This document shows, one piece after another, positions 33,083-60,568 of a DNA stretch of 64,000 bases. Every line of letters starts with the position of its first letter. The stretch's first letter is position 1. The notes under the pieces were generated by a model. That model was not told the DNA's origin and did not search any database. It saw only the letters and a program-made list of their open reading frames with translations. The DNA is from a virus. The DNA is taken from positions 1 through 64,000 of IMG/VR virus record IMGVR_UViG_3300012920_000029; one strand, written 5' to 3'. The position numbers and the translations under genes are program-made.

Positions 33083-35065
33083 TTACTCCATTTGAGTATG
33101 AATATCGATAGAGAAAGCATCTAATACTACTGACCTAGGCCAGGATACTGTAGATACTTTCTCTACAAAATCGTTTATGTAGTCAGTTAGTAGATCTACA
33201 GTGGTAGTAGATTTAGCTAACTCTTTTAGAGAGGTATTAGTAGGCATATGCACAGTGTGATTATATCCAGGTAAAAGATATTTACATACCCCAAAACTAC
33301 CTTTAGCTCCATAATAGCGAGGCTTAGTGATGTCTACAAAAGCTTTCATTAGGTATAATACTCTAATAGACCAGTCATTCAACCAAGTATTAGCATAAAC
33401 CCTAGAGCGAGGCATATCACCAAAAGTAGTGATAAACTCTTCAGCTGTAATGGATACATACCAAGCAGTCTCAGATGAACTAAATTCTCTTTTACCACAA
33501 CTAGCTCGATAGTCGTGTGTAGGTAGTAAAATTGACCACTCAGAGGTCTCTGTATTAGAGAATCTTTCTAACCCCGCTATTCCTGTATGTACTCTAGAGC
33601 TCATATTTGATATGAACTTTGCTTTACTTTCTCTACCCCAACTATTCATAACTGAAGAGCATAGTTCGGAGGACATCTCATACTCTACAAAGGTTGTCAT
33701 AGAAGTAGGCAATATTATAGCTCCATAGAAGAACCTATCGTTAGCTTTAATAATTCCCATAGCTTCTTTAACTTTAGGAGTTAGTTCTACTTGGCTAAAT
33801 TCTTGGTACACGTTACAGGTAAATCTATTAGGGCTGATATTCTCAGTAGCATCAAGAATAAAAAGCTTAGCCGCTATTCTAATTAAAGTAGATTCTAAAC
33901 CCGAAGTTTCTTTAGTAGTAGCACCCTTACAGTTTTTAGATACATTGGTATAACTATGTAGATATGCTTTGTTTAGCTGAAGAGATTCGCAACTAGGTCT
34001 TAGAATACATTTAGAACACTCTTCCTCCTTAAACTTTTTTACCTCAGCCCTTCTAGATTGGTAATCTAAGTAAATACGTATTCCTTTATTTACATAGTTT
34101 GTTCCTACGTACCCACCAGAGGACTTTGAACCTTGTACGCTTAGAAGTAATTGCTCTGTACTTCTGAATGCGCCGAATGATGCTGGGGAGCTTCTTCTTA
34201 AAAGCCTAAAGGAATTATCCATAATAACTCTATGTGCAGCCATAGGAGCGTAAGTCAGGGCTGTGGAAGAAGCTATTTTCTTAGCAGCTTTTTTAATTTT
34301 AGCTTGGTTTAATCTAAAACCATAATCTACTTGATTATCTGTTAGTAAAGGTACACAGTTATGACTATTAGAGCAGCTTAAGCATCCAGCCATATACAGA
34401 CTGCCCAATTCATCGCATTCATCTGAAAACTCGGATAGCAAATTTACTCGTTGAAGGGAGTCTTCGAGTTTGTAGTATAAATAGAGATCCTTAGTTAACT
34501 TGTTATAAAAGTTCAGCATAAGACTTTCGGGTAAGAAAGGGCTTATTAAGGTAAAATCGCAAAAAATATCTTCTCTCAAGTTTCTTAAGAAAACCGATAA
34601 CTTTTGAGAACTTTCTAAGTCAGCTTCTAGTTCGTCCGGATCCTTATCAAAGAATTTATTTAAGGTAAACTCACCTTTGAAAAAATCTACACCTTTATTC
34701 CTCATAGACCAGTGATCAATGTCCATTTTTGACCCTATAGAGCCCATTAGCAACTTAGAATATATTGCGTAAGTAGGGCCATCTAGTACGTAAACTTCCG
34801 ACCAATCTTCTAAGACCGATTCAACTACCTCTTCTATTATCGGGGTATCCTTAGAAGTAATCATTAAGCAATTAGAATTAGAACCCCCTGTCAGGTAGGT
34901 TTGTCCTCTACCAGACCAGGAAACACGTTCTTTCTTTCTAATAGAGTCAACCCAACTAGTAGGGCTGGATCTAAATTCTGTCCATATAGGTTGTGAGAAG
35001 GTAGAGTGCAAATAATGTGTGGGTTCACTTAATCTAGTAGGCATTACGTAAATAGATTTATCCAT
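33083..35065 (-). CDS. Unknown protein with two cysteine clusters, next to the RT
   Basis: 660 residues, start preceded by AAGGAA, overlapping the reverse transcriptase stop by 8 nt. Two clusters with the same spacing occur: C-x2-C-x5-C near residues 230-240 (CLSCSNSHNC) and near 345-355 (CSKCILRPSC), with a further Cys in NCKG. These could bind zinc or an iron-sulfur cluster. The N-terminal third has a P-loop-free alpha/beta look. No family recognised. The immediate coupling to the RT makes it the best candidate for a functional partner. Confidence 0.55.
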   Translation of the reverse strand: MDKSIYVMPTRLSEPTHYLHSTFSQPIWTEFRSSPTSWVDSIRKKERVSWSGRGQTYLTGGSNSNCLMITSKDTPIIEEVVESVLEDWSEVYVLDGPTYAIYSKLLMGSIGSKMDIDHWSMRNKGVDFFKGEFTLNKFFDKDPDELEADLESSQKLSVFLRNLREDIFCDFTLISPFLPESLMLNFYNKLTKDLYLYYKLEDSLQRVNLLSEFSDECDELGSLYMAGCLSCSNSHNCVPLLTDNQVDYGFRLNQAKIKKAAKKIASSTALTYAPMAAHRVIMDNSFRLLRRSSPASFGAFRSTEQLLLSVQGSKSSGGYVGTNYVNKGIRIYLDYQSRRAEVKKFKEEECSKCILRPSCESLQLNKAYLHSYTNVSKNCKGATTKETSGLESTLIRIAAKLFILDATENISPNRFTCNVYQEFSQVELTPKVKEAMGIIKANDRFFYGAIILPTSMTTFVEYEMSSELCSSVMNSWGRESKAKFISNMSSRVHTGIAGLERFSNTETSEWSILLPTHDYRASCGKREFSSSETAWYVSITAEEFITTFGDMPRSRVYANTWLNDWSIRVLYLMKAFVDITKPRYYGAKGSFGVCKYLLPGYNHTVHMPTNTSLKELAKSTTTVDLLTDYINDFVEKVSTVSWPRSVVLDAFSIDIHTQME

Positions 35066-36014
35066 AAATTTCCTTAAGTTTTTCTAAGTAAGTGGTCACT
35101 AGAGTAGCTCTAGCGCTAGCAAGGTAGGGTTTCCAGTAGTTAACTCTACCTTCAATAGAAAGTAGTAAAGAAGTGTCTTCTTCTACTTTAAAGTATTCTT
35201 TAGCTCTGCGCTCTTGCTCAGATCTATCTTTGTCAGAACAGTTAGCTAAGTTATGTAATATGGCTTTTAGACGTAACCATTTCTTTTTAGGAATGTTAGG
35301 CTTCGTGTTACAAGTAAATCCCAGAGCTTTTTGATTTCTGTAGTAGGGAAGTATCTTTTTCTTGTGACACCTCCACCCTAGCGTTGAAGCTATAACATCT
35401 AGTTTAGAAAGTACTTCTTTACCGTTTACTTTGTTAGTGGTAAATCCTAAGTATAGGTTATCACTATATCTAGTGTATTCGGCGTTTGGAAATTCTTTAA
35501 TTACCAAAGGGTCTAGTAAGAATTCGCAGACTCGATTACTCAGAAGCGGACTTACTACCGACCCCTGGGGTAAAAAACTTTTGCCCGCTGCATTTTTTAC
35601 ACAACAAAGCCTAGCTATTATGTAGGCTACTCTATCTGAAAACCCATGGTGTATCAGCATAGCTTTTACTTGCTTTAGTTTAATACTGTGGAAGTGGTTA
35701 ACAAAATCTGCAGTGACTAGTAGAGGATGTCGAGATAGTCTTTCTGCAGCCACTTCAATACCCACCCCTTGTTCATAAGCAAACGAAAACCCATTAGCAG
35801 GTAGCACTTCCTCTAGGTACTCTTTTAAACCTTTATGTACTTTTTTAAGCGCAGGGGATACTTTGTACACTTGCCTAATCTTCCTACCTTTAGGTATACG
35901 AATAGGTGTAAAATGGCTAGTATAGTGCTCTGGTTCGTAGTTACATTTACTTAGCCATATTAGTATTTTATACTCAATGTTTAGTCTATTAGCCAATAAT
36001 CTAGGAGTTATCAT
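35058..36014 (-). CDS. Reverse transcriptase with YSDN active site
   Basis: 318 residues from ATG 36014, which has AAAGGTG upstream; an ATG 27 nt earlier lacks a site. RT motifs in order: IRIPKGRKIRQVYK (about 38-51), LVTADFVNHFHSI with Asp103, SFLPQGSVVSPLLSN (about 146-160) and YTRYSDNLYLGF, with Tyr183-Ser-Asp185-Asn186. Thus the second Asp of YxDD is Asn. After that come a GWRCHKKKI-type motif D/E region and a helical thumb. Organisation is like retron-type RTs. No maturase or HNH domain and no adjacent msr-msd-like locus. It overlaps both neighbours, so it is an operon member, not a recent solitary insertion. Confidence 0.75.
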   Translation of the reverse strand: MITPRLLANRLNIEYKILIWLSKCNYEPEHYTSHFTPIRIPKGRKIRQVYKVSPALKKVHKGLKEYLEEVLPANGFSFAYEQGVGIEVAAERLSRHPLLVTADFVNHFHSIKLKQVKAMLIHHGFSDRVAYIIARLCCVKNAAGKSFLPQGSVVSPLLSNRVCEFLLDPLVIKEFPNAEYTRYSDNLYLGFTTNKVNGKEVLSKLDVIASTLGWRCHKKKILPYYRNQKALGFTCNTKPNIPKKKWLRLKAILHNLANCSDKDRSEQERRAKEYFKVEEDTSLLLSIEGRVNYWKPYLASARATLVTTYLEKLKEIYG

Positions 36015-36672
36015 ATCCAACACCTTTCTGACAAAGGGCACATCCTAAGGCACACTCTTTCGATAGGTACATTAGTTGATATGCGCAAGATTCTAGCACG
36101 CTATCAAGGGAGAAGATCTTCTCATCTTCATCTAGTTCATAAGTAAGCATCTGCGTAGTTTCGCATTTGAAAAAGAAATCAAATCTAGTTCTATTATGAA
36201 TAGAAGAATCTACACCAATCTCTTTCCCTGCAGGCCTCGTGGTAACGATTTCGTATGAATTACCGAAGAAACTTCCTAAAGCTTTAAAGCCATAAGGTTT
36301 CTGTACAGCTAAGGCAATATAAGTTTCAGGACACTCTAGGGGGACCTTCGCTATGTTAGCTAACTCATTTAAGAAGCTAGGTTCTTCTATCAAATAATCT
36401 AGTAACTCGTAGTAAACATTGGAATATTTGTCTACTATAAATGAGTTACCATACTTAGGTAATTCCTCAAGCATAGCTTCCTCATTTTTAAAGAGTACAA
36501 ATGAGCTCACTGTAGACCTAGTTCTACTTCCAGGAATTATTAGCTTATATTCAGGCCTATTTATAAATTCGAAAGCTATAGCATCGCTACTTAGTTTAAT
36601 AGGATTCATCACTAGCTGATTAATAGACCTTTGTTTTACAGCAGAAGGTAGTCGCATGTAGTGTCTAGACAT
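36001..36672 (-). CDS. Unknown protein with C-terminal cysteine cluster, upstream of the RT
   Basis: 223 residues, not recognised. The body is mixed alpha/beta; the last 20 residues have CALGCALCQKG (C-x3-C-x2-C) after a further Cys, which may be a small metal site. The gene overlaps the metallopeptidase/VWA gene by 8 nt upstream and the RT start by 14 nt downstream, so its product is probably made together with RT. Its ribosome binding site is weak (AAAG). Confidence 0.5.
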   Translation of the reverse strand: MSRHYMRLPSAVKQRSINQLVMNPIKLSSDAIAFEFINRPEYKLIIPGSRTRSTVSSFVLFKNEEAMLEELPKYGNSFIVDKYSNVYYELLDYLIEEPSFLNELANIAKVPLECPETYIALAVQKPYGFKALGSFFGNSYEIVTTRPAGKEIGVDSSIHNRTRFDFFFKCETTQMLTYELDEDEKIFSLDSVLESCAYQLMYLSKECALGCALCQKGVGYDNS

Positions 36673-38305
36673 TCTTTAGATGTATGAACTTGCCGTAAGA
36701 AGTAGAACCATATACCTCTGTGGGCCTATTAAAGTAACCCCAGGTATCTGCAGGAATCCTACCTACAGAGGAAATAAGCCAAAGAACTTTAGCTTCAGGA
36801 ATGCGAAGTTCCTGAGGAGGCAAGGTACACTCGCCGTCTGTAGCGTAAATAAGTAAATCTACATTTTTAGGAGGGCGCACTGTTTTAGCATGGTCGTCAT
36901 ACCACACCTTATCTCCGCGTACCCATTCGAATACAGGATTGAAAGATGTTCCTCCGCGGCCACGTAAATCCCTATCTATCTCTGAAGCTTTGCTCATCTC
37001 ATAGATTTTAACTATGCGAGTATCGCACTCTACTACAGTAACTTCTATCCCTGGGTTAGAACGCATAATACCTTCTAACTCAGCAAATATTTCCTGTACT
37101 TCACTATTGGAAACACTACCGCTGGTATCGATTGCGAAAACAATAGAGTACGTAGGATTTTTAATACGACCCGGAAAAGGAGACGTTCTAAAACCTTTAA
37201 TTCTGGTGTAGTTACGCTTAGGTCTACTCATGCTGCGTTTACGTAGATTAGGGTTAGCACTGGTAGTGTACCTCTTTAGTACATCACGCCAGTTAACCTC
37301 AGGATCCTTAGTTAGTTCGTCAACCCACGCTTTAATATTCCCTCCTACAGCACCCCTGCTTTTCTCATTTAAGTTACTAGAAGCATTTACCATAGCTCTT
37401 TTAAACTTACGATTTAGGGCCTCTGTAATTTCGTCAATAGATTTTTCAGAGTCACCAATAGCTGTATCTAGATCAGAGATAATTTGATCCTCCGAAAGAC
37501 CTGCACTACCCAAAAGCTCTTGTAACTGTTTATTAGTCATAGCTTCTAGAGCCTTACTTATGTTGGTAGAACTACCTTCCGTAGAGCTTCCCTCAGCGTT
37601 ATCAGAGGAAGTACCTCCGGGATAGCAATCTTCACCCTCTCCATCACTTCCTCCTATAGGAGGAGGCTTAAGCATGGAGTTATCCCCTCCAGCTCGTTTT
37701 AGTAATTCGTGAGTGTACCACTCCATAGACTTCAGAGGAGGTAATCCTGCGTCAACAGGGTGTATACCTGCGTAGGTACCCATCGCTTCTCCTTCAAATT
37801 TTTGTTCTTCAGTAGGATTTTCTATGGGAGTCCCTACACAGCATTTTAGTTCTCTTAGTGTAAAAATCTTAAACTGATTGATTAGCCACGAATTTAATGC
37901 GTAGTCAGCGGCTACATGCATAACCGCCGCTATTTTGATTAGTTTATCTTTATCTTCTTTGTAGATATCCCTAGCTTGCAACATACGTCCATTATGGCAT
38001 AAAGCTGCATGCCCTAGCTCATGGGTGATAACAATACCAGCACCTAGTTCGTCAAGCTCTTTTACCATATCAGGAGAGTAGCGCATAACATAATGACCAT
38101 TTTCTACAGCCATACTAAACGTAGGTGTATTAGGACATTTTATAATACGCATACCCGATAGGATATCTACAAAGAACGAGAACCTGCCTAGGTGAGAGTT
38201 TCTAACCATGAGCTTTGCAAGGTAGTTGTTCAAATTCTTTTCTAGTTTTATAATTTTAGGAGTATTTGATTTTTTACTCCCAATAATAGATCTTCTTCGT
38301 CGCAT
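36665..38305 (-). CDS. Metallopeptidase-like/VWA domain protein (DUF2201-type)
   Basis: 546 residues from ATG 38305 (GGAGG 7 nt upstream); the in-frame ATG 48 nt earlier would run into the opposite gene. Residues 90-104 contain VITHELGHAALCH, with HExxH at 95-99. A Gly/Ser/Glu-rich linker follows at about 215-265. The C-terminal VWA domain starts near 390 with AIDTSGSVS (MIDAS DxSxS), Thr in GRGGTSF and Asp in ATDGE. This is the DUF2201 putative metallopeptidase plus VWA architecture, which normally works with a MoxR ATPase; one is coded at 40192. Role in phages is unknown. Confidence 0.8.
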   Translation of the reverse strand: MRRRRSIIGSKKSNTPKIIKLEKNLNNYLAKLMVRNSHLGRFSFFVDILSGMRIIKCPNTPTFSMAVENGHYVMRYSPDMVKELDELGAGIVITHELGHAALCHNGRMLQARDIYKEDKDKLIKIAAVMHVAADYALNSWLINQFKIFTLRELKCCVGTPIENPTEEQKFEGEAMGTYAGIHPVDAGLPPLKSMEWYTHELLKRAGGDNSMLKPPPIGGSDGEGEDCYPGGTSSDNAEGSSTEGSSTNISKALEAMTNKQLQELLGSAGLSEDQIISDLDTAIGDSEKSIDEITEALNRKFKRAMVNASSNLNEKSRGAVGGNIKAWVDELTKDPEVNWRDVLKRYTTSANPNLRKRSMSRPKRNYTRIKGFRTSPFPGRIKNPTYSIVFAIDTSGSVSNSEVQEIFAELEGIMRSNPGIEVTVVECDTRIVKIYEMSKASEIDRDLRGRGGTSFNPVFEWVRGDKVWYDDHAKTVRPPKNVDLLIYATDGECTLPPQELRIPEAKVLWLISSVGRIPADTWGYFNRPTEVYGSTSYGKFIHLKNV

Positions 38306-38317
38306 AAAGGACCTCCA

Positions 38318-39298
38318 ATGATCGATCAAAATAATGATGTGACATTCAGCCACTTGAAAACAATTCTAGAAGACATGCCTCAAATACGTGAGCATATTAA
38401 AGAAGCTCAAGTAGGTGAGGAAGTCCGTGAAAAAACTAGTAACAGTGCGTTTGCGGATACCTACAATCGCAGGTTCCCCGTAGCTTCGAAAGCAGACGCA
38501 ATACTGTCAAAAGCTTATGCCACAAAAGTGGCAAATCTTGCGCCAGAAATCATGAATAAAATAGATGTTGCACTTAAAATTTATGATGTTCCCAATAGTA
38601 TATTTGAAACTCAAAAAATAGCTTATGCTACCGAAGAACCTGACTATCTATTAGAGGCTCAACAAAAATTACCTTTGTACAAAAATACTATTACTAAAAC
38701 AGCTGAATACTACTTACATAAAAATGCACATAAATTAAGGCCTAATACTCTTTCTAGTGCTGCAGTAAAATTAGTAAAACACGCATCGTCTAGAGACGAA
38801 GAAGTTTCTACAGAAACTCTCAAGTATGCTGGGTTAGTACAATCTAACTTAGAAGAAGCAACTAACTGGATAGAAGCTAGGGCACATAAAGTAGATAACC
38901 CTAAATATGCAGAAGCATATACTAAGTTAGCTAACGTAGTAAGTAGCCTTGATACTGAGACCAGTAGAGATCAATTAATTAAAGTTTCTAACACCTTGGA
39001 AAATTTAGACACTCTTAGTGGTCTAGATGTTTACTACCACAAATATTTACCTGACTCAGTAAGCACTATTTTTAACACTAAAATAGCTATGGCACCTTCA
39101 GTAGACATGTCTGGTAAGCAAATAGGGTTAGAAAAATTACTAGCAGTAGACCCTTCTGTATACGGAGACATCTTAGGTTCTGATATAGTTGAGGAGATTA
39201 CGGAAAACGGTGAGTTAGACAGTCAAAAACTTATTGAGGTATTTGAGACTTTACCCGCAGATATGAAAGCACTGTTAGTGGAGAAATTATCTCTATGA
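38318..39298 (+). CDS. Hypothetical helical protein
   Basis: 326 residues, start ATG with AAAGGA 6 nt upstream, which lies inside the 12-nt gap to the divergent VWA gene. The sequence is mostly helical with Lys/Ala/Glu-rich segments; ETQKIAYATEE and ITKTAEYYLHKNA repeat a K-x-A pattern seen in putative virion proteins here. No motif recognised. The stop overlaps the next start by 4 nt. A virion or assembly role is possible. Confidence 0.5.
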   Translation: MIDQNNDVTFSHLKTILEDMPQIREHIKEAQVGEEVREKTSNSAFADTYNRRFPVASKADAILSKAYATKVANLAPEIMNKIDVALKIYDVPNSIFETQKIAYATEEPDYLLEAQQKLPLYKNTITKTAEYYLHKNAHKLRPNTLSSAAVKLVKHASSRDEEVSTETLKYAGLVQSNLEEATNWIEARAHKVDNPKYAEAYTKLANVVSSLDTETSRDQLIKVSNTLENLDTLSGLDVYYHKYLPDSVSTIFNTKIAMAPSVDMSGKQIGLEKLLAVDPSVYGDILGSDIVEEITENGELDSQKLIEVFETLPADMKALLVEKLSL

Positions 39299-40181: not shown

Positions 40182-40201
40182 CCTTTAGCCTTTAGCCTTT
40201 A
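40182..40201 (-). repeat. Triplicated AAAGG-type ribosome binding repeat
   Basis: On the minus strand the sequence reads as three adjacent copies of a 7-bp unit (GCTAAAG) ending directly at the ATG of the 64-aa gene. Only the middle and distal copies have usable spacing for a Shine-Dalgarno pairing. The repeat also contains the stop codon of the ATPase gene. Confidence 0.5.
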
Positions 40202-41349
40202 ATTATGCTCTTAATTTCTGGGAAGATCTCGGTGTTCCAGCCGTCCTTCTTAGACATTACTCCCAAAAGTAAGCGATAATAATTACCGTCTGTATTAACC
40301 TTGAACTTGTTAAGTTCGTGCATAAATTTCATTTTATGCTCTGCACTCAACTCAGCCCAGAATTTAACTACATTGGTAGCTGTAGTTTCTGTATCGGGCT
40401 GATTATCCATTACGAACATAGCTACTGATGTAGTTAGTCGAGACACTAGATCTGCTCGACCCTCACGCTCCATCTTTTCTATGATAGGTTTAGCTTTGCT
40501 AGTGTAGGCAGTAACTACTACCTTAGGAGGTAGTTTGTACTCACTATCTTCTGTAAAGCTTACAAAGTCGCTAGCCATGTCATAATTCAAATAGCCTGCT
40601 AGGATAGAGGCATCTAGTAGGCCTCCGTTAGCGTGGAGGAAGTTCGAAACCTCATGCCATACCGCAGGGTTTCCGTAGATTTTGCCAGCATTACGAGCTT
40701 TTTCGTCCATTAGCGCATCTACGTTACTCTCGATGTATTCTATCACATATTTGTGCATGTCTACCTTACGAGCATATTTAAGCCATCCGCTCACAGAATG
40801 TACAGCATAGTAGTGCTTGAGACGACGTCGCCAAGCAAAGTCAGACATAATGTCTTTAACAGCGTAGTCTCCGTTGTCTGGATTACAGGCGGCCATTAGG
40901 TAGCAGTTTTCAGGTAGTGGGTGTCCGTGTAACCGACGCTCAGTCAGGATATTAAACATGATAGTAGACACCGCTTCACTGGCGCGGGTTACTTCGTCCA
41001 GGAATAGTACGCTAGGCTTTCCTAGTTTCCCGGCTTCGAAAATAGGTTTGATCCATTCTGGCAACTTCATGCCAAAGTATTTAGGATCCTCATCATCAGC
41101 GAAAGGAATACCTAAGTCCTCTGGCTGACATTCGCTCATAGTTTTTGCTACGAAGGCATGTGCCTTTAACCGTTCTGCTATTTGATGGCAAATAGCAGTT
41201 TTGCCAATACCTGAGTCGCCGTGTAGGCAAGGAACTCCCCCACTCAAGCACACCCTAATGATGGTGTTAGCGGCATTAGAAATAGGCACTGTTGTAATCC
41301 CAAGTTTGTTAGTGTACTTTGTTATAGTAGAATCTGTTTGATTTGTCAT
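40192..41349 (-). CDS. MoxR-like AAA+ ATPase
   Basis: 385 residues from ATG 41349 (GAGGAG 4 nt upstream). Walker A is GDSGIGKTA near residues 40-48; Walker B VLFLDEVTRA near 115-124; sensor 1 in LMAACNPDNG near 155. The remaining C-terminal half is helical. The family couples ATP hydrolysis to remodelling of complexes with VWA-domain partners; the likely partner is the metallopeptidase/VWA protein at 36665. The gene is head-to-head with the terminase, 10 nt between start codons. Base composition appears GC-richer than the tail genes. Confidence 0.8.
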   Translation of the reverse strand: MTNQTDSTITKYTNKLGITTVPISNAANTIIRVCLSGGVPCLHGDSGIGKTAICHQIAERLKAHAFVAKTMSECQPEDLGIPFADDEDPKYFGMKLPEWIKPIFEAGKLGKPSVLFLDEVTRASEAVSTIMFNILTERRLHGHPLPENCYLMAACNPDNGDYAVKDIMSDFAWRRRLKHYYAVHSVSGWLKYARKVDMHKYVIEYIESNVDALMDEKARNAGKIYGNPAVWHEVSNFLHANGGLLDASILAGYLNYDMASDFVSFTEDSEYKLPPKVVVTAYTSKAKPIIEKMEREGRADLVSRLTTSVAMFVMDNQPDTETTATNVVKFWAELSAEHKMKFMHELNKFKVNTDGNYYRLLLGVMSKKDGWNTEIFPEIKSIIKG

Positions 41350-41359
41350 AGGACTCCTC

Positions 41360-42874
41360 ATGTTAATGATTAATAGAAAACAACTAGCTGAAGCTAGTCT
41401 TGAACTAGACGGAGATAGATTCTCCTTAAATGACTACCCTTTCTACCACGCTTTATACAAAGGTGAATGGCCTAGTACATTGCTTATGTGCGGTAGGCAA
41501 GTGGGTAAGTCGGTTAGTGCAGCCGCATTTAGTGTATGTGAAAGTGTGGCTATACCTCACTTCAAAACACTATATATAGCACCTACTCTTAAGCAAACCA
41601 GTACTTTTAGTAATACCCGTGTTTCTAAATTAGTGCGCCATAGCCCCGGTATCAAAGCTTTGATGGGGGCCGTTACCTCGGACAATGTATTTCTCAAAGT
41701 CCTAGGCAATGGTAGCGAGTTAATATTTAACTACGCCTCCGACGACCCTGATCGGGTTCGGGGAATCTCTGCAGACCGTGTCATATACGACGAGGTGCAG
41801 GACATAGATTATGACGCTGTAGTACCTGTAGTTAACGAGTGTTTAGCCAACTCTAAGTATGGCTTCGTTAGCTACATGGGTACTCCAAAAACACAAGAGA
41901 ATACTATTCAATTTATTTGGGACAACTCATCCCAGAGCGAGTGGTGCGTTAAATGCGACGCTTGCAGTAAGTACTCTTTTTATAGAACAGTGGACGGAGT
42001 AGGTAAAACAGGACCTATTTGTTTGCACTGCAAAAAAAATGTAGACCCTCGTAACGGTATGTGGGTAGACATGAAGAAAGAGTATTACACTAAGGCCTTC
42101 CATGTGCCTCAGATAATTCTTCCTGCCAATGCTGAGCATGGAAACCGTTGGGAGAGGATTCTAAATAAACTAGATACCTACTCTGATACCAAGTTCAAGA
42201 ACGAGGTATTAGGGGTAAGCGATAGCGTAGGTTCAAGGTTAATCTCTATGGAAGAATTGCATAGAGCCTGTAAATCTAGGCAGTCCGCTTCGGGGTTTGT
42301 TTGCGGAGGTGTAGACTGGTCTGGAGGTGGATCTAAAGGTCTTAGCCGAACCGTCTCTTGGGTATTCTCTCGATCTCCGGGTGGCAAGTTCGTGTGCCAT
42401 CATTATCATATCTACAAGGACGTTAATCCCGTGGATGCTGTAGATAGAATCGCCCAGACCTTCAGAGACCATCAGGTAGCTCTAGTCATGGGAGACGCTG
42501 GGGAAGGAGCCTTAGCTAATAGTCTGTTGACCAAGAAGCTTATGGGAACTCCAGTTTACCAGTGCCAGTACGGCTCTAGTTCCAAACCCCTGAAGTGGAA
42601 TGGAGTTGACCGGTATCTTGTAGATAGGACTACTCTTATCGATTGCTTCTTTTTAGACATCAAGCAAGGTAGAATTCAATTCTTATCCCAGTCTGAGATG
42701 AAAGAGGCCTTCGACGATTTTCTAGCTTTGTACGAAGAAGTCATGCCTTCAGGTAAGAAGGTGTGGCGTCACTCTCCCAACTCTCCAGATGACTGTCTCC
42801 ATGCGGCAGTGTTTTCATGGGCTGCGTGTAAGATATTAACCCATGATTTATCCTTCTACCATAAGGATTCTTAG
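41360..42874 (+). CDS. Terminase large subunit
   Basis: 504 residues, AGGA 6 nt before ATG. ATPase: Walker A LMCGRQVGKS at about 42-51, Walker B VIYDEVQD with Asp144/Glu145, motif III-like SYMGTP at 171-176. An inserted zinc finger has C196, C199, C202 and C221, C224. Nuclease: GVDWSG with Asp319, VMGDAGE near 400, and SPDDCLHAAVF near the C-terminus, giving the RNase H-like acidic triad. It drives DNA packaging and cuts the concatemer. The small terminase was not recognised. The gene is followed by the non-coding RNA array. Confidence 0.85.
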   Translation: MLMINRKQLAEASLELDGDRFSLNDYPFYHALYKGEWPSTLLMCGRQVGKSVSAAAFSVCESVAIPHFKTLYIAPTLKQTSTFSNTRVSKLVRHSPGIKALMGAVTSDNVFLKVLGNGSELIFNYASDDPDRVRGISADRVIYDEVQDIDYDAVVPVVNECLANSKYGFVSYMGTPKTQENTIQFIWDNSSQSEWCVKCDACSKYSFYRTVDGVGKTGPICLHCKKNVDPRNGMWVDMKKEYYTKAFHVPQIILPANAEHGNRWERILNKLDTYSDTKFKNEVLGVSDSVGSRLISMEELHRACKSRQSASGFVCGGVDWSGGGSKGLSRTVSWVFSRSPGGKFVCHHYHIYKDVNPVDAVDRIAQTFRDHQVALVMGDAGEGALANSLLTKKLMGTPVYQCQYGSSSKPLKWNGVDRYLVDRTTLIDCFFLDIKQGRIQFLSQSEMKEAFDDFLALYEEVMPSGKKVWRHSPNSPDDCLHAAVFSWAACKILTHDLSFYHKDS

Positions 42875-42883
42875 TTTCCGCTT

Positions 42884-43018
42884 CTACTAGTCCAAGATGA
42901 CCATCCCGGTAACCATGCTCCGTGGCCTCTGTAGCGAAGCGGAGAGGCCTGGTGCGTTGGTGCTAGCTTATAGTACGTAAGAGTATCTCTTACCAAGCTA
43001 ACCAATAGCGACTAGTAG
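42884..43018. ncRNA. Structured RNA unit 1
   Basis: Closing stem CTACTAGT (42884-42891) with ACTAGTAG (43011-43018), 8 bp. CCAAG at 42892-42896; AGCG at 43007-43010. Stem GGCCTCT (42924-42930)/AGAGGCC (42943-42949) with a loop containing GCGAAGC. Hairpin GTAAGAG-TAT-CTCTTAC at 42977-42993, which sits on a longer stem TAGCTT/AAGCTA plus TTGGT/ACCAA. A run of eight T (43019-43026) follows on the plus strand. Strand uncertain. Confidence 0.65.
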
Positions 43019-43027
43019 TTTTTTTTA

Positions 43028-43143
43028 CTTAGTCCAAGAATTTTCCCAGGCACGCTGCGCAGGCTTTGCGAAGCAAAGCAAGCGAGGCGTCAAGCATTTT
43101 GAGTTTAGGAGTAGCTCCTAAGTATGCTTGTTTAGCGACTAAG
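43028..43143. ncRNA. Structured RNA unit 2
   Basis: Closing stem CTTAGT (43028-43033)/ACTAAG (43138-43143). CCAAG at 43034-43038, AGCG at 43134-43137. Internal hairpin GCTTTG-CGAAG-CAAAGC shares the GCGAAGC loop of units 1 and 3. Stem CAAGCAT/ATGCTTG encloses the hairpin TTAGGAG-TAG-CTCCTAA (43105-43121). Stem positions match unit 1 but with changed base pairs. Confidence 0.65.
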
Positions 43144-43147
43144 CTAA

Positions 43148-43289
43148 CATTTACTAGTCCAAGATATCGTCCTGGTTCCGGCGACGCAAGGTTGCTGTAG
43201 CGAAGCGAAAGCACCTGACGCGCCTGGAAGTCAGCTTGTTGCAGGTAAGAGTAACTCTTACTAAGCTAACCAATAGCGACTAGTAAATG
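43148..43289. ncRNA. Structured RNA unit 3
   Basis: Longest closing stem of the family: CATTTACTAGT (43148-43158) with ACTAGTAAATG (43279-43289), 11 bp. CCAAG follows the left arm and AATAGCG precedes the right arm. Hairpin GTAAGAG-TAA-CTCTTAC at 43245-43261. The loop GTAGCGAAGCG is shared with unit 1, and the last 20-odd nt before the right arm are nearly identical to unit 1, so these two are recent duplicates. Confidence 0.65.
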
Positions 43290-43291
43290 TT

Positions 43292-43405
43292 CCTAGACCA
43301 AGAGAGCCACAGCCTGAGCTGGGGACCCCATTCCAGCTACGCTGGAAAAAAAGAAGGTATAGGTGAAGTTAGTAACTAACTTCCAACCCTCTCAAAGCGT
43401 CTAGG
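43292..43405. ncRNA. Structured RNA unit 4
   Basis: Closing stem CCTAGA (43292-43297)/TCTAGG (43400-43405). CCAAG at 43298-43302, AGCG at 43396-43399. Internal hairpins include CCAGC-TAC-GCTGG and GAAGTTAG-TAA-CTAACTTC (43365-43383, 8 bp). The middle region is diverged from units 1-3 and has an A-run after the first hairpin. Confidence 0.6.
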
Positions 43406-43409
43406 TTGT

Positions 43410-43506
43410 GCACAAACCAAGTGGGCGAGACCTCGAATTCAGGACTCGGTCCGCAACTTGTGTGCAGTAGTATCTTCTGCCATGCTTACCGCATGAGCGT
43501 TTGTGC
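43410..43506. ncRNA. Structured RNA unit 5
   Basis: Closing stem GCACAAA (43410-43416)/TTTGTGC (43500-43506), extendable to 10 bp with flanking bases. CCAAG at 43417-43421, AGCG at 43496-43499. Hairpin GCAGTAG-TAT-CTTCTGC (43464-43480) has one T-T mismatch, followed by a small hairpin ATGC-TTACC-GCAT. Shortest unit, 97 nt. Confidence 0.6.
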
Positions 43507-43610
43507 GCACAAACCAAGAGATTGCGAGCTCTGCAGCGTGCATCGATCGCAGATCACATCTTGAATGCAGTAGTAGCTACTGCGTATGCTTAACACATAA
43601 GCGTTTGTGC
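43507..43610. ncRNA. Structured RNA unit 6
   Basis: Same closing stem as unit 5: GCACAAA (43507-43513)/TTTGTGC (43604-43610), starting on the next base after unit 5. CCAAG at 43514-43518, AGCG at 43600-43603. Perfect hairpin GCAGTAG-TAG-CTACTGC (43567-43583), then TATG/CATA hairpin. Units 5 and 6 share ends but differ in the middle. Confidence 0.6.
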
Positions 43611-43745: not shown

Positions 43746-43762
43746 AAGTACTTATACCACGT
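43746..43762. promoter_or_regulatory. TACTTATACCAC element beside the RNA array
   Basis: TACTTATACCAC at 43749-43760 is identical to the element at 56438 and overlaps the last codons of the polymerase gene. Read leftward it gives GTGGTATAAGTA, close to an extended -10 (TGnTATAAT-like), pointing into the RNA array. This would drive minus-strand transcription of the units. Only inference. Confidence 0.35.
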
Positions 43763-46700
43763 TTTGTTTCATTTTTGCGCAGTATGCTTCTATACTATAT
43801 TTAGCTTCCCCGTAACTAGGCCCTACCTCTACATCATAGGGTAGAGCTACAGGTACTATAGGGAATTCTTGTTTAATAAAGTCTCTAACCGCAGACTCTA
43901 GAAATTTAGGTAACTCCTCTAGCTTACTAGCAGGCATTTCGAATACAATACTATCGTGAACTGTTAGTAGTAGCCTACCATTTAGTTCTGATAAACGAGA
44001 GTGTAGGTTAATTAGGGTTCTACACACTATCTCTGAAGTGAATCCTTGAACTAAGTAGTTAACTCCCTGTCGTTGACAACTACTTCCTACACTACCTCCC
44101 ATAAATGCTAGAGGAAATCTTCTAGCCCTGCCTGTAGGTGTTCTTAGTATACCGTCACTTTTTACCTTTCTTTTAGTACCTGAGATATACTCTTCTACTT
44201 TAGGAAATCTAGCAAAGAACATATTCATTAAGCCTATAGCCTCATCAGGTGTTATCCCTAGTTGCATAGACAATTTGTTTGGTCCGATACAAAATATAAG
44301 ACCAAATACAATAGCTTTAGCTTGCTGACGTAAGGTTACTAGTTTCTTGTCTGCATCTGTTTGAACTACTTTGTCTTTTTGTCTAGCAGTATTTATAGCC
44401 TCATAGTCTTGTTCAAAAACTATACTAGCTACCCAAGAGTGCATATCCAGACCTTTGTTCAAAGCGTCTAGCAATCCCGGATCTCTAGCGTACACTGTTA
44501 GCCCCCGGACCTCAGCCCCCGCAAAGTCCAGGTCCACGACACAAAGTTCTTCATCTACTGACCAACCATACTTAGCACATAACTTTCTCTCTACTTCATT
44601 CGCTGTAGAACTAGTGTCTGTAGGTACAAAAGCTTTTTTAATAGGTACTCCAGCTATTGTAGGGGGTTGGTTCTGTAAGTTAGGATTACTTGAGGACAGT
44701 CTGCCGGTGGCTGTTCCATTAGCATTAGTATTACCATGTACTCTACCATCGTAACTACTCAGTAAGAGTAAGTTATCTAGGTAGGTAGCTCTACCTTTAG
44801 CCGCCGATCTGTAATCTAGTATTGTTTGAGCTATAGGATTTGTTTTTGCCCACTCAGCCAATACCTCATTACTACAGCTATGCGCTCCTGTTTCTGTCTT
44901 TTTTAGACTGGGCATGCCATAACCAGCAATCATAATATTAGCTAAGTCTGAAGGATTGTTTAAAACAATATTTTCTCTAGGCCTAGCTAAGTCATTACTT
45001 ATTTTATCTAGTAAATCGCCTTTTAACTTCAGTTCTCGATCTTTTAAAATAGCACTTTGCTCTATTAAGTAGGCCCTATCTATCCTAACACCTTCCACTT
45101 GCATATCACTTAATACCTCAGTGAGGGGTATATAGTGCTTAGACATTAAGTTCATCATAAAATCCCTACCCTCAGCATCGGCCTTAGATTTAGGATCTTC
45201 TCTCCAAGCCTTAATTCGTTGCATAGAGCTCAATCGATAGGTCAAGTCTGCGTCTATAGCGGCATAAGGTATCATTATATTAGGATCTACCATTTCAAAG
45301 GTCACTTTTTCGTGATAAGGATCTATCCTACTTTTACCTGTAATGTTAGAGAACTCTGTTCTTAGTATCTTAGATACTGAATTCTTTACCTTCTTAATAT
45401 ATTTAGCCCTGTTTGATAGCATAGCTAGAGTAGCTTCTATTACCATTTTTTGATTAGCAGGAGTAGATTTAAGCCTATTCATCTTTTTTAACTTTTTAGA
45501 AGTCTCCTTAATGTCTTCTAGCTCAGACTCTAAGTCATCAGAACCTAAGGGACTTAACGACTTTCTACTACCAATAGTATTAGTCATAGCTTTACTGAGT
45601 AAATCTGCCTCAATATTACTAGATACTGAGTTAAGCTGATCCACTAAAGGTTCTTCGTATTTCGCTAGCGAAGGATAGTGTTCTAAGACTACTTTCTTTA
45701 GACTGTATAATCCTTTCTTATCCTCATCTAGCATATGCTCTGCTAACATACCATCCCATCTAGTATTATTTACAGGGTTAGAAAAGATATCTTCTAGGGG
45801 CTTGCCAACTACTTCTTCTATAATACCTTTAAGGCCTAAGTGCTGGGATATAGCCTGCTTAGTTTGCCTTACTAGTATATGTTTAGCAATTCCGTAGTCG
45901 AATTTATAGTTCCACCAAGTTTTAGCATGAGGTGACTGTAGTAGCTTCCATATATAAGGTATGATACCTCCGAAGCTGTAAGGAGCATCTTTATGGAATA
46001 CGTAGAGAGATAAGGCTTTACCCTCTGCTACACAGGCGGATATAGCTATTACCTTACCTTCTGAGTTCCATGGAAATAGTGTGGTAGTCTCGAAGTCTAG
46101 AGACATCATAGTATTAGCTACAGTTTTTCCTGGAGAAGAGTACTCACAGTACTCATTTATAATAGCTATAGCATCCTCTAAATCTTTAGGCCTAGGTTTA
46201 TAAGGTGTAAGAGGAGGCACTATGTCATAATTAGCTAGTAGCTCAGGCACATCGATATTATCTAAAGGGTGCCCGAAAGCTATCTTTGCAGCTTTAGCAA
46301 TGTCTCCGCAAGCCACGTCTACTACTCCTACCGACTCAAACATTTTGCTTAAACCAAAGGTAGGTAAGACTTTAAAATCTTTTTTTCCAATAGTAACCTC
46401 TATAACAGTACCTCGGACATGGCTATGAAGAGATTTTACACCTAAGAAACTAAGTGCTTTAGGTCCGAAAGCTAATATTGTACTAGCCCCGGAGCTCAGT
46501 ATCTGGCTATAACCGACATTATCTGCACAGGTTCTTAGAAGCTTGACACTGCTATTTACTCTAGAAGCACAGGATACTGCATACATATAGAAACAACTAG
46601 CTTTGAGCTTACTGGATAGTCCTGTAGGATCTACCTTAGCCGCCCTAGTAAGGAGAGATTTCATCATGTCTCCATCTCTACCCGCCAAAGGTACAGTAGC

Positions 46701-46820
46701 CCAAGGTGGAGGTGAATCCATTAGTATAACTACTGAAGCAGGCTTAGATCCCATCCCAGGTACTAGTATATTCTTATATAACGGGCAGGTTGTACAAGAT
46801 ATTGGTTTTATTATACTCAC
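43752..46820 (-). CDS. Family A DNA polymerase with N-terminal UDG-like domain
   Basis: 1022 residues. GTG start at 46820 overlaps the primase stop (GTGA). Residues 1-190 look like a family 4/5 uracil-DNA glycosylase: C9-x2-C12, C84, C98 as iron-sulfur ligands and PLAGRDGDMM, but the catalytic GEAPG region is altered (MDSPP). Exonuclease: SLDFETT with Asp242/Glu244 and YAAIDADLTYR. Polymerase: TATGRLSSSNPNLQN, VVDLDFAGAEVR (motif A), LRQQAKAIVFGLIF (motif B, O helix), LTVHDSIVFE (motif C with Ser in place of Glu). SPO1-type polymerases have the same UDG fusion. Replicative polymerase of the phage. Confidence 0.9.
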   Translation of the reverse strand: MSIIKPISCTTCPLYKNILVPGMGSKPASVVILMDSPPPWATVPLAGRDGDMMKSLLTRAAKVDPTGLSSKLKASCFYMYAVSCASRVNSSVKLLRTCADNVGYSQILSSGASTILAFGPKALSFLGVKSLHSHVRGTVIEVTIGKKDFKVLPTFGLSKMFESVGVVDVACGDIAKAAKIAFGHPLDNIDVPELLANYDIVPPLTPYKPRPKDLEDAIAIINEYCEYSSPGKTVANTMMSLDFETTTLFPWNSEGKVIAISACVAEGKALSLYVFHKDAPYSFGGIIPYIWKLLQSPHAKTWWNYKFDYGIAKHILVRQTKQAISQHLGLKGIIEEVVGKPLEDIFSNPVNNTRWDGMLAEHMLDEDKKGLYSLKKVVLEHYPSLAKYEEPLVDQLNSVSSNIEADLLSKAMTNTIGSRKSLSPLGSDDLESELEDIKETSKKLKKMNRLKSTPANQKMVIEATLAMLSNRAKYIKKVKNSVSKILRTEFSNITGKSRIDPYHEKVTFEMVDPNIMIPYAAIDADLTYRLSSMQRIKAWREDPKSKADAEGRDFMMNLMSKHYIPLTEVLSDMQVEGVRIDRAYLIEQSAILKDRELKLKGDLLDKISNDLARPRENIVLNNPSDLANIMIAGYGMPSLKKTETGAHSCSNEVLAEWAKTNPIAQTILDYRSAAKGRATYLDNLLLLSSYDGRVHGNTNANGTATGRLSSSNPNLQNQPPTIAGVPIKKAFVPTDTSSTANEVERKLCAKYGWSVDEELCVVDLDFAGAEVRGLTVYARDPGLLDALNKGLDMHSWVASIVFEQDYEAINTARQKDKVVQTDADKKLVTLRQQAKAIVFGLIFCIGPNKLSMQLGITPDEAIGLMNMFFARFPKVEEYISGTKRKVKSDGILRTPTGRARRFPLAFMGGSVGSSCQRQGVNYLVQGFTSEIVCRTLINLHSRLSELNGRLLLTVHDSIVFEMPASKLEELPKFLESAVRDFIKQEFPIVPVALPYDVEVGPSYGEAKYSIEAYCAKMKQNVV

Positions 46821-59081: not shown

Positions 59082-60440
59082 TTAACCCAGACTAGTGTTT
59101 TCGTCTGGGGGTGATAATAATTTGCGGAAATCGTTTACTCCTTCCTGTCCAATCATATCAGCTAGCTGAGGATCACTAACGAACGCTAGCAGTCCTTTTC
59201 TAGTTGGGAAATCATCTAGCCCGGGCAATTCGGGAAGGAATTTTACACTCCCTTCTTCTTCGAAGTACCCCAACCCATCGAATATGGGTTCCAAGGAAAA
59301 TCGATCACCTGTGAATTTATTCACAAGTGCTCTAATCTCTGGTACTGTTGAGGTCTTGATGGATTCACACTCAACCAAGAAATGGCAGATGGGAACATAG
59401 CAATCTTCGCCTACCATCTCAAAGACTTCTAGCTCCGACCCCTCGGCAGGGCCTTCCGGTCGGATCATCTGCAGAAGTTTGGTATCCCACTCCACCATAG
59501 GACCTACCTTTTCTACATAGGTTTCTTGCAGCTGACCCCACGCTGCGGTTAGACTACCTCTAGTGCTAGCCCACTCTGCCTCGGCTTTGGCTTCCGCCTC
59601 TGCCTTAGCTTTAGCTTTAGCAACCTCTACTGGTTTCAATAGCGCCGCTAGCTTAGCCTTTTTGGCCGCTAGCTTAGCCTTTTTGGCCTTAGCTTCCTCT
59701 TCAGCTCTTTTGCGATTTTGAGCCTCTAGACGTTTTTCTTTAGCCTGTTTCTCGGCCTGGCTCTCTTGAGCCTCGATTTCGAGGGGGGTAAGAGCAAGAA
59801 ACTTACTGTATAGCCTACTGGACAAGCCTGTCACGGCTTGCCACAGGGAGCAAGTACCTCTACTTTCTCCCCTCACCATCACGTTTACTAGTCCTGTATC
59901 CAGAATAGTACCTAGAAAAAGAGGAGAATCGATCACCTCTTCAGGGTCGTTACTAGTGGCCTGTAGATGTAGCTTAGTACCTACACCTTCAAGGAAGAGG
60001 GCAGCAGATGCTTGACGAAAAGGCTTAACATGCTTCGCTTCGGTGCGGCGAATACACATCTCAATGATAGGAACCCCTGCCACTGTTTCGGGTACTTGCA
60101 AAGAGGCTGCTTGGGTTTCTCTCAATTTTACTTTGCAGACAAAGTATTCGTCTGCTTTACCACTAGGCTTATGCTTTAGGAAGTCAATAAGGATTCTAGC
60201 TAGTTGCCCTCTATTTGCATGGCCTGAGAGGCCTCTCCCCTCTAGCGTCAGAGACATTCCTTCCATGAAGGTTGGATTGTTTTTGACGAATTTCGCAAAG
60301 GGGTAGAAGGTTTTAGCCTTCTCTCCCTGTACTTTTTTTTTAGTCATCTCTGATCGGAATTTTTTATTTCCGATTTTCAGAGTTTTACTAGCCGCCCCGT
60401 TTTCAGTCTTGGGCGTATTAGACTTCTTTTTTCGTGCCAT
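59082..60440 (-). CDS. Hypothetical protein with Ala/Lys/Glu-rich central helix
   Basis: 452 residues; AAAGGAGA 5 nt before ATG. The first 45 residues are very basic (ARKKKSNTPK; TKKKVQGEKAK). Residues about 225-290 form a long Ala/Lys/Glu-rich helix with a 21-bp direct repeat in the DNA (two KKAKLAA units near 59650-59690). The flanks look globular. No known domain. Codon use and base composition look GC-richer than the tail genes, and the site is strong, which suggests high expression. Role unknown; a nucleic-acid-associated protein is conceivable from the basic N-terminus. Confidence 0.55.
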   Translation of the reverse strand: MARKKKSNTPKTENGAASKTLKIGNKKFRSEMTKKKVQGEKAKTFYPFAKFVKNNPTFMEGMSLTLEGRGLSGHANRGQLARILIDFLKHKPSGKADEYFVCKVKLRETQAASLQVPETVAGVPIIEMCIRRTEAKHVKPFRQASAALFLEGVGTKLHLQATSNDPEEVIDSPLFLGTILDTGLVNVMVRGESRGTCSLWQAVTGLSSRLYSKFLALTPLEIEAQESQAEKQAKEKRLEAQNRKRAEEEAKAKKAKLAAKKAKLAALLKPVEVAKAKAKAEAEAKAEAEWASTRGSLTAAWGQLQETYVEKVGPMVEWDTKLLQMIRPEGPAEGSELEVFEMVGEDCYVPICHFLVECESIKTSTVPEIRALVNKFTGDRFSLEPIFDGLGYFEEEGSVKFLPELPGLDDFPTRKGLLAFVSDPQLADMIGQEGVNDFRKLLSPPDENTSLG

Positions 60441-60520
60441 AACTATCTCCTTTGTTTGGCCGAGAGGGATTTAACCTCTATTGTCTAGTACCCAAACACT
60501 CCTTTGAAACTAGGGTGTCT

Positions 60521-60546
60521 GGTGCATATACTTATGACACATATAC
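60521..60546. promoter_or_regulatory. Promoter-like element in divergent spacer, upstream of RNA polymerase
   Basis: CATATACTTATGACACATATACC is alignable over about 35 bp with the spacer at 56431 (allowing short gaps). The core ATACTTATG ends 32 nt before the ATG at 60569, exactly as at the portal gene. It is also about 90 nt upstream of the divergent gene ending at 59082. Probably a phage promoter or operator. Confidence 0.5.
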
Positions 60547-60568
60547 CTCTGATTTTGTGAGTTTTACT

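What the first reader, a model, noticed from the sequence alone, without database searches (positions are those of the whole stretch)
42884..43610. Tandem array of six homologous structured RNAs with covarying stems
Six consecutive units fill the only large gene-free stretch. All share CCAAG inside the left arm, AGCG inside the right arm, and a 7-8 bp hairpin with an AG-TAN-CT tip just before the end. The closing stems are kept by compensating changes (ACTAGT, CTTAGT, CCTAGA, GCACAAA). I recognise no known class (not tRNA, CRISPR, retron or the common ribozymes). Tandem duplicates with conserved fold and changing interior suggest a phage RNA system, perhaps with a variable specificity part between CCAAG and the terminal hairpin.
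Basis: partly seen in the sequence, partly recalled or inferred. Interest (0 to 1): 0.92.

Follow-up and report, generated by a model that had tools for sequence, protein, structure and literature searches.

The report
Phage array of retron-like RNAs
This virus of bacteria carries seven different small RNAs in a row, each shaped like the template RNA of a bacterial retron, plus a retron-type reverse transcriptase that could copy them into short DNAs; such a multi-template retron set as a core part of a phage lineage appears not to have been described.

Summary
Each unit reads a1 | G(C) - 7-bp hairpin with a triloop - variable hairpin region - YUUG | a2. On 24 units from five genomes, the a1/a2 stem and the hairpin are 93% paired (54% shuffled), and all 15 pairs show double changes. 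A model built only from other genera finds five of seven window units at exact ends. Rfam gives nothing, but it also misses known retrons. The phage has one RT (35058-36041), nearest to retron RTs by sequence and fold. It lies in a fixed block (RT, vWA, TerL, RNA gap, PolA) in about 25 IMG/VR contigs. The block's RTs form one supported clade, and units of the same layout lie in most PolA-TerL gaps. Most likely the RT, acting in trans, turns the array into a set of different branched msDNAs. Production of msDNA and its role are not shown. The RT departs from canonical retrons: xLG for VTG, YSDN for YxDD, ncRNAs 7 kb away, no known effector.

The parts
   Evidence: (E 4e-9)
43507..43610 (-). unit 2: a1 GCACAAAC | GCU ... 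GCAGUAG-CUA-CUACUGC ... CUUG | GUUUGUGC
   Evidence: E 7e-10
43410..43506 (-). unit 3: a1 GCACAAAC | GCU ... ACUUG | GUUUGUGC
   Evidence: E 1e-7
43291..43406 (-). unit 4: a1 CCUAGAC | GCU ... GAAGUUAG-UUA-CUAACUUC ... CUUG | GUCUAGG
   Evidence: (E 4e-8)
43152..43285 (-). unit 5: a1 ...ACUAGUC | GCU ... GUAAGAG-UUA-CUCUUAC ... CUUG | GACUAGU...; msd loop with d(GCGAAGC) on the cDNA strand
   Evidence: (E 2e-11)
43027..43144 (-). unit 6: a1 CUUAGUC | GCU ... UUAGGAG-CUA-CUCCUAA ... CUUG | GACUAAG; msd hairpin tip d(TTTGCGAAGCAAA) on the cDNA strand
   Evidence: (E 6e-10)
42885..43017 (-). unit 7: a1 CUACUAGUC | GCU ... GUAAGAG-AUA-CUCUUAC ... CUUG | GACUAGUAG; msd loop with d(GCGAAGC)
   Evidence: E 2e-11; E 3e-4 with the held-out model
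43750..43759 (-). TGGTATAAG: extended -10-like element at the 5' edge of the array, overlapping the PolA stop codon; TG[GT]TATAAG-like in the same place in many relatives
   Evidence: promoter role inferred
35058..36041 (-). retron-type reverse transcriptase (327 aa), motif A VTADFVNHF, LPQGS, YSDN
36001..36672 (-). small protein directly 5' of RT, overlapping it; likely divergent member of the Cys-motif family found before RT in 13 relatives
33083..35065 (-). Cys-rich protein directly 3' of RT, overlapping it; no known domain
36665..38353 (-). VWA/DUF2201 metallopeptidase-like protein, first gene of the RT operon in all relatives
41360..42874 (+). terminase large subunit, right flank of the array (convergent)
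43752..46820 (-). family A DNA polymerase, directly upstream of the array and co-directional with it

Best explanation
The array is a natural multi-template retron. One minus-strand transcript (PolA read-through or the TGGTATAAG promoter) carries seven back-to-back msr-msd-like ncRNAs. In each, the outer stem a1/a2 places a guanosine directly 3' of a1; the 7-bp triloop hairpin is the msr signal recognised by the RT; the variable region between it and a2 is the msd template. The phage's own retron-type RT, encoded about 7 kb away, acts in trans, primes from the 2'-OH of that G and copies each msd, giving up to seven different branched msDNAs. Shown: anatomy, strand, covariation, conservation of array locus plus RT across a phage lineage, retron identity of the RT fold. 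Inferred: priming, DNA synthesis and use in trans. Role, most likely first: counter-defence decoy or sponge DNAs for host defences (about 0.35), a replication or recombination function of the phage (about 0.3), exclusion of rival phages (about 0.2).
For: RNA: covariation in both helices; G next to a1 and G next to a2 invariant in 24 units; held-out model finds 5/7 window units; units occur only in the array in whole records of 72 and 147 kb. Contexts ACGC and TAGC match those listed for the retron priming G, and a stem with a 3-nt loop is what retron RT region Y binds (PMC6868368). RTs of known retron kind show the same layout: S. aureus annotated retron, a1|GA..GCACGAG-UUU-CUCGUGC..GAG|a2; Burkholderia RT, a1|GC..ACGGGG-CUA-CCCCGU..CACG|a2. 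RT: profile against PDB gives retron Ec67 4e-37 and Ec86 3e-33, against group II 9e-10 and DGR 1e-5; Foldseek top 18 hits all retron RTs; PADLOC retron models 1e-33. Linkage: of the TerL-found loci reaching far enough, all ten have the RT; block RTs are one clade, 100/98; same-layout units in relatives' gaps, 26 sense against 2 antisense; one relative has a single classical unit (L024). cDNA-strand GCGAAGC mini-hairpins with extra stem: 4 seen, 0.19 expected.
Against: No transcript or msDNA evidence. The RT has xLG instead of VTG, and in this clade YSDN instead of YxDD; activity may be altered. The ncRNAs are not next to the RT. No known retron effector. The L010/L011/L016 clade has a regular array without a detectable within-unit a1/a2 stem, and L053/L054 have only a 2-nt gap although the RT is present. 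The strand test by folding energy is modest, and msd folding does not separate DNA from RNA function (p=0.08).
Confidence: 0.82

Rival explanations
1. The units are structured RNAs that work as RNA only (small regulatory or protein-binding RNAs, RNA decoys), and the retron-type RT in the same phage does something else.
For: Folds and covariation show RNA structure, not reverse transcription. RT is 7 kb away. YSDN could mean a weakened RT.
Against: The anatomy is that of retron ncRNA in every tested detail (G after a1, triloop hairpin, G before a2). RT catalytic D and motifs are conserved over deep divergence. RT and array locus are both core to the lineage.
Confidence: 0.13
2. A DNA-level element between polymerase and terminase: replication origin, packaging site or hairpin promoters of the N4 type.
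For: Position between TerL and PolA; inverted repeats; d(GCGAAGC) mini-hairpins in several units.
Against: Strand-asymmetric features, G-U bias and a fixed order of parts; 7 units with changing sequence but kept pairing; no shared binding-site sequence.
Confidence: 0.03
3. A guide-RNA array (CRISPR-like, TIGR-like, omegaRNA) or diversity-generating retroelement with template repeats.
For: Tandem units with variable interior; a reverse transcriptase is present.
Against: No effector or repeat of that kind; RT is retron-type, DGR match only 1e-5; variable parts have no match of 15 nt or more elsewhere in the window.
Confidence: 0.02

Closest known systems
Retrons of the Eco1/Ec86 and Eco2/Ec67 kind (RT plus msr-msd ncRNA)
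   Same: RT family and fold; a1/a2 stem; G directly after a1; 7-8 bp stem with triloop in the msr; variable hairpin before a2
   Different: Many ncRNAs per RT instead of one; ncRNAs 7 kb away at the end of the polymerase gene; no known effector; xLG and YSDN; vertically inherited core of a phage lineage rather than a sporadic defence cassette
Nannocystis exedens retron Ne160 (duplicated msr-msd repeats without an RT within a kilobase)
   Same: Several msr-msd copies away from an RT, as reported in the review PMC6868368
   Different: Bacterial chromosome; here a regular back-to-back array at a fixed phage locus with diverse msds, kept over deep divergence
Retrons carried by P2-like phages and prophages (phiR73 Ec73; Klebsiella phage 4LV2017 retron St85 type)
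   Same: Phage-borne retron RT; some sit beside terminase or cos
   Different: Those are single cassettes with one ncRNA and an effector, accessory cargo; here RT and array are separate, and both are core
Engineered multi-template retron arrays (from own knowledge, not checked)
   Same: Several msr-msd units served by one RT
   Different: Here natural, in a phage

Membership tests
Retron | RT of the retron family | tested here: met
   Profile vs PDB 4e-37 retron against 9e-10 group II; Foldseek top 18 retrons; PADLOC and NCBIfam retron models, below NCBIfam's named-subfamily cut-offs
Retron | Terminal inverted repeats a1/a2 of the ncRNA | tested here: met
   8-bp P1, 96% paired, all 8 pairs with double changes
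Retron | Priming guanosine at the inner end of a1, usually AGC, also ACGC | tested here: met
   G invariant in 24/24 units, C next in at least 90%; contexts listed in PMC6868368. That it primes is not shown.
Retron | msr stem-loop recognised by the RT (7-8 bp, 3-nt loop in characterised cases) | tested here: met
   7-bp stem, NNA triloop, covarying, also in deep relatives. Binding not tested.
Retron | VTG triplet at the start of region Y | tested here: not met
   ALG/GLG/VLG/MLG in the lineage; a minority of validated retrons also deviate
Retron | YxDD active site | tested here: not met
   YSDN in this clade, YSDD in the deeper relatives L013, L014 and L017
Retron | msr-msd and RT in one compact cassette | tested here: not met
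   Array and RT about 7 kb apart in this genome and in the relatives
Retron | Known effector protein | tested here: not met
   No PADLOC/Pfam match for RT neighbours; unknown Cys-rich partners conserved
Retron | Production of branched msDNA | not testable with these tools
   needs bench work
Diversity-generating retroelement | Template repeat matching a variable repeat in a gene | tested here: not met
   no match of 15 nt or more to the interiors in the window; the 8.4 kb of the record outside the window was not tested
Rfam families | Score at or above gathering cut-off | tested here: not met
   known retrons also unmatched by Rfam

The most novel reading that the evidence does not exclude
A widespread lineage of uncultivated tailed phages has a domesticated, core retron-type RT that turns a fast-changing array of up to seven or more ncRNAs into a cocktail of different ssDNAs, a phage weapon or replication device rather than a bacterial defence.
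Probability: 0.5. Interest if true: 0.93.

Novelty: new variant of a known kind. Interest (0 to 1): 0.86.

Why it matters
Retrons are known as bacterial anti-phage defences with one ncRNA beside the RT. Here a phage lineage keeps a retron-type RT as a core gene and serves it with an array of different templates. That raises a testable question: what do phages use msDNAs for? It also offers natural multi-template retron sets for making several ssDNAs at once. Eight paper searches found no description of natural tandem retron arrays in phages; the library holds open-licence papers only.

Tried and rejected
Rfam at gathering and permissive thresholds: nothing; not informative, since known retrons also fail. 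tRNA: none. Plus strand as RNA: rejected. Guide or repair-template role: interiors have no match elsewhere in the window. Single-sequence RT search of viral contigs found nothing; the profile found 62 loci. Genome-contig scan with the RT profile gave only 5 weak cellular loci. Covariance models do not reach deep relatives; the layout descriptor does. msd folding as DNA against RNA does not discriminate. Promoter motif not enriched over the window, only positionally conserved. Sister phage RT group (L027, L032 and others): no array found within 10 kb. A first held-out alignment (99) was discarded because a2 was misaligned in several rows; a cleaner subset was used.

Full report
Observation. The array between the terminase gene (41360-42874, +) and the family A polymerase gene (43752-46820, -) is real. 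G000 is a 72.4-kb virus record. Each unit folds well on both strands, so the strand had to be settled separately. On the minus strand the units become retron-like: a1 | GCU ... 7-bp hairpin with triloop ... variable part ... CUUG | a2. With pairing rules symmetric between strands, 6 non-overlapping units are found on the minus strand (a seventh, 43410-43506, was lost to overlap selection), 0 on the plus strand, 0 in the rest of the window, about 0.01 per shuffle; G-U exceeds A-C 10:4. Sense folds better than antisense in 17 of 24 units, p=0.016. A covariance model finds exactly seven units in the whole record, E 2e-11 to 1e-7, spaced by 0-16 nt.

Structure. MAFFT alignment of 24 units from five genomes gives, by RNAalifold without a structure supplied by me, the outer stem P1 (8 bp) and the hairpin P3 (7 bp). 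93.3% of cells pair against 54.3% in shuffles; the covariation score is 0.978 against 0.219, and 0.07-0.15 when slid; all 15 pairs have changes on both sides. Units in the relatives had been chosen partly by pairing, which inflates these numbers. A held-out test addresses this: a model from nine units of L004, L006 and L007 finds five of seven window units and two of five L012 units at exact ends, all on the minus strand, as the seven best hits in 81.5 kb searched on both strands. The G directly after a1 and the G before a2 are invariant.

Relatives. TerL finds relatives in IMG/VR. The same gap holds units in L004, L006, L007 and L012. All ten TerL-found loci that reach far enough contain the RT gene. 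A profile of these RTs finds 62 loci; about 25 have the block PolA, gap, TerL, AAA, two small genes, vWA, RT. The PolA-TerL gap is 183 to about 1100 nt in most, longer (partly coding) in some, and 2 nt in L053/L054. L024 has a single unit with the classical retron order. A layout search (a1|G, NNA triloop hairpin, G|a2) over 17 relatives' gaps gives 26 sense hits (20 outside L004) and 2 antisense hits. Triloop hairpins of this kind recur even where the RT is only about 25% identical. RT rows of the block form one clade, support 100/98, as expected for vertical inheritance.

RT. Pfam RVT_1; PADLOC retron RT models to 4e-33; NCBIfam retron St85 1e-28, below its cut-off; PDB profile search retron Ec67 4e-37, Ec86 3e-33, group II 9e-10, DGR 1e-5. 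The AlphaFold model (pLDDT 84) matches retron RTs in the first 18 Foldseek places. Deviations: xLG in place of VTG, YSDN in place of YxDD in this clade, YSDD in deeper relatives. Six relatives' whole records each hold one RT gene; one shows it as two adjacent matches.

Comparison with known retrons. PMC6868368 describes 8-30 nt complementary ends, a priming G at the inner end of a1 in TAGC, CAGC, GAGC or ACGC context, and an 8-bp stem with a UUU loop bound by RT region Y. Units here have ACGC, TCGC and TAGC contexts and a 7-bp stem with an NNA loop. As positive controls, the noncoding DNA 5' of six RT genes was examined: an annotated S. aureus retron and a Burkholderia RT show the same layout clearly, the others less so. 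Rfam misses these known retrons as well, so its silence says nothing.

Mechanism. The minus-strand transcript likely starts at TGGTATAAG, an extended -10-like element at the array's edge conserved in position in many relatives, or reads through from PolA (promoter role inferred). The RT would act in trans on seven templates. Predicted cDNAs carry the d(GCGAAGC) mini-hairpin more often than expected (8 seen, 2.3 expected; with extra stem 4 seen, 0.19 expected), a weak hint of a DNA product; that this hairpin is unusually stable in DNA is from my own knowledge. Interiors have no match of 15 nt or more elsewhere in the window, which speaks against repair templates, DGR or guides for this phage. 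The conserved neighbours of RT (vWA, a small Cys-motif protein, a Cys-rich protein) are candidate partners without known domains. Msd sequences and unit number change quickly: L012, with TerL 93% identical, has five units against seven, while RT and locus are kept. I read this as an arms-race function, most likely decoy DNAs against host defences, but a replication role or rival exclusion is not excluded.

Limits. No expression data. The L010/L011/L016 clade has a regular array of another build, and L053/L054 have almost no gap. Literature searches covered open-licence papers only. Verdict: works like a retron (confidence 0.82). As a member it is a variant, because VTG, YxDD, cassette adjacency and a known effector were tested and not met.

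Noticed in passing
L010:9500-10065, L011:9497-9869, L016:9497-10114: A different regular tandem array in the same PolA-TerL gap: GC-rich hairpin, GUGUUUAU, triloop hairpin, GACUAGUG, long variable hairpin, with no within-unit a1/a2 stem found; the RT of this clade is also the most diverged (LVQGG).
   Followed up: partly
window 33083-38353 (-) and the same block in relatives: Overlapping operon vWA/DUF2201 - small Cys-motif protein - RT - Cys-rich protein, conserved over deep divergence; the small and Cys-rich proteins match no known family and may be partners of the RT.
   Followed up: partly
L053, L054: PolA and TerL stop codons are 2 nt apart although the RT is present; where their ncRNAs lie, if any, is unknown.
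   Followed up: partly
window 60440-63274: Second gene-poor stretch with only short minus-strand ORFs (86 aa or less).
   Followed up: no
L027, L032, L038, L040, L042, L046, L050, L052: Sister clade of retron-type RTs in other, often large, viral contigs; no array found within 10 kb of the RT.
   Followed up: partly
window 40192-41361 and 36665-38353: MoxR-like AAA ATPase and VWA/metallopeptidase-like pair flanking the terminase side, conserved throughout the lineage, function in the phage unknown.
   Followed up: no
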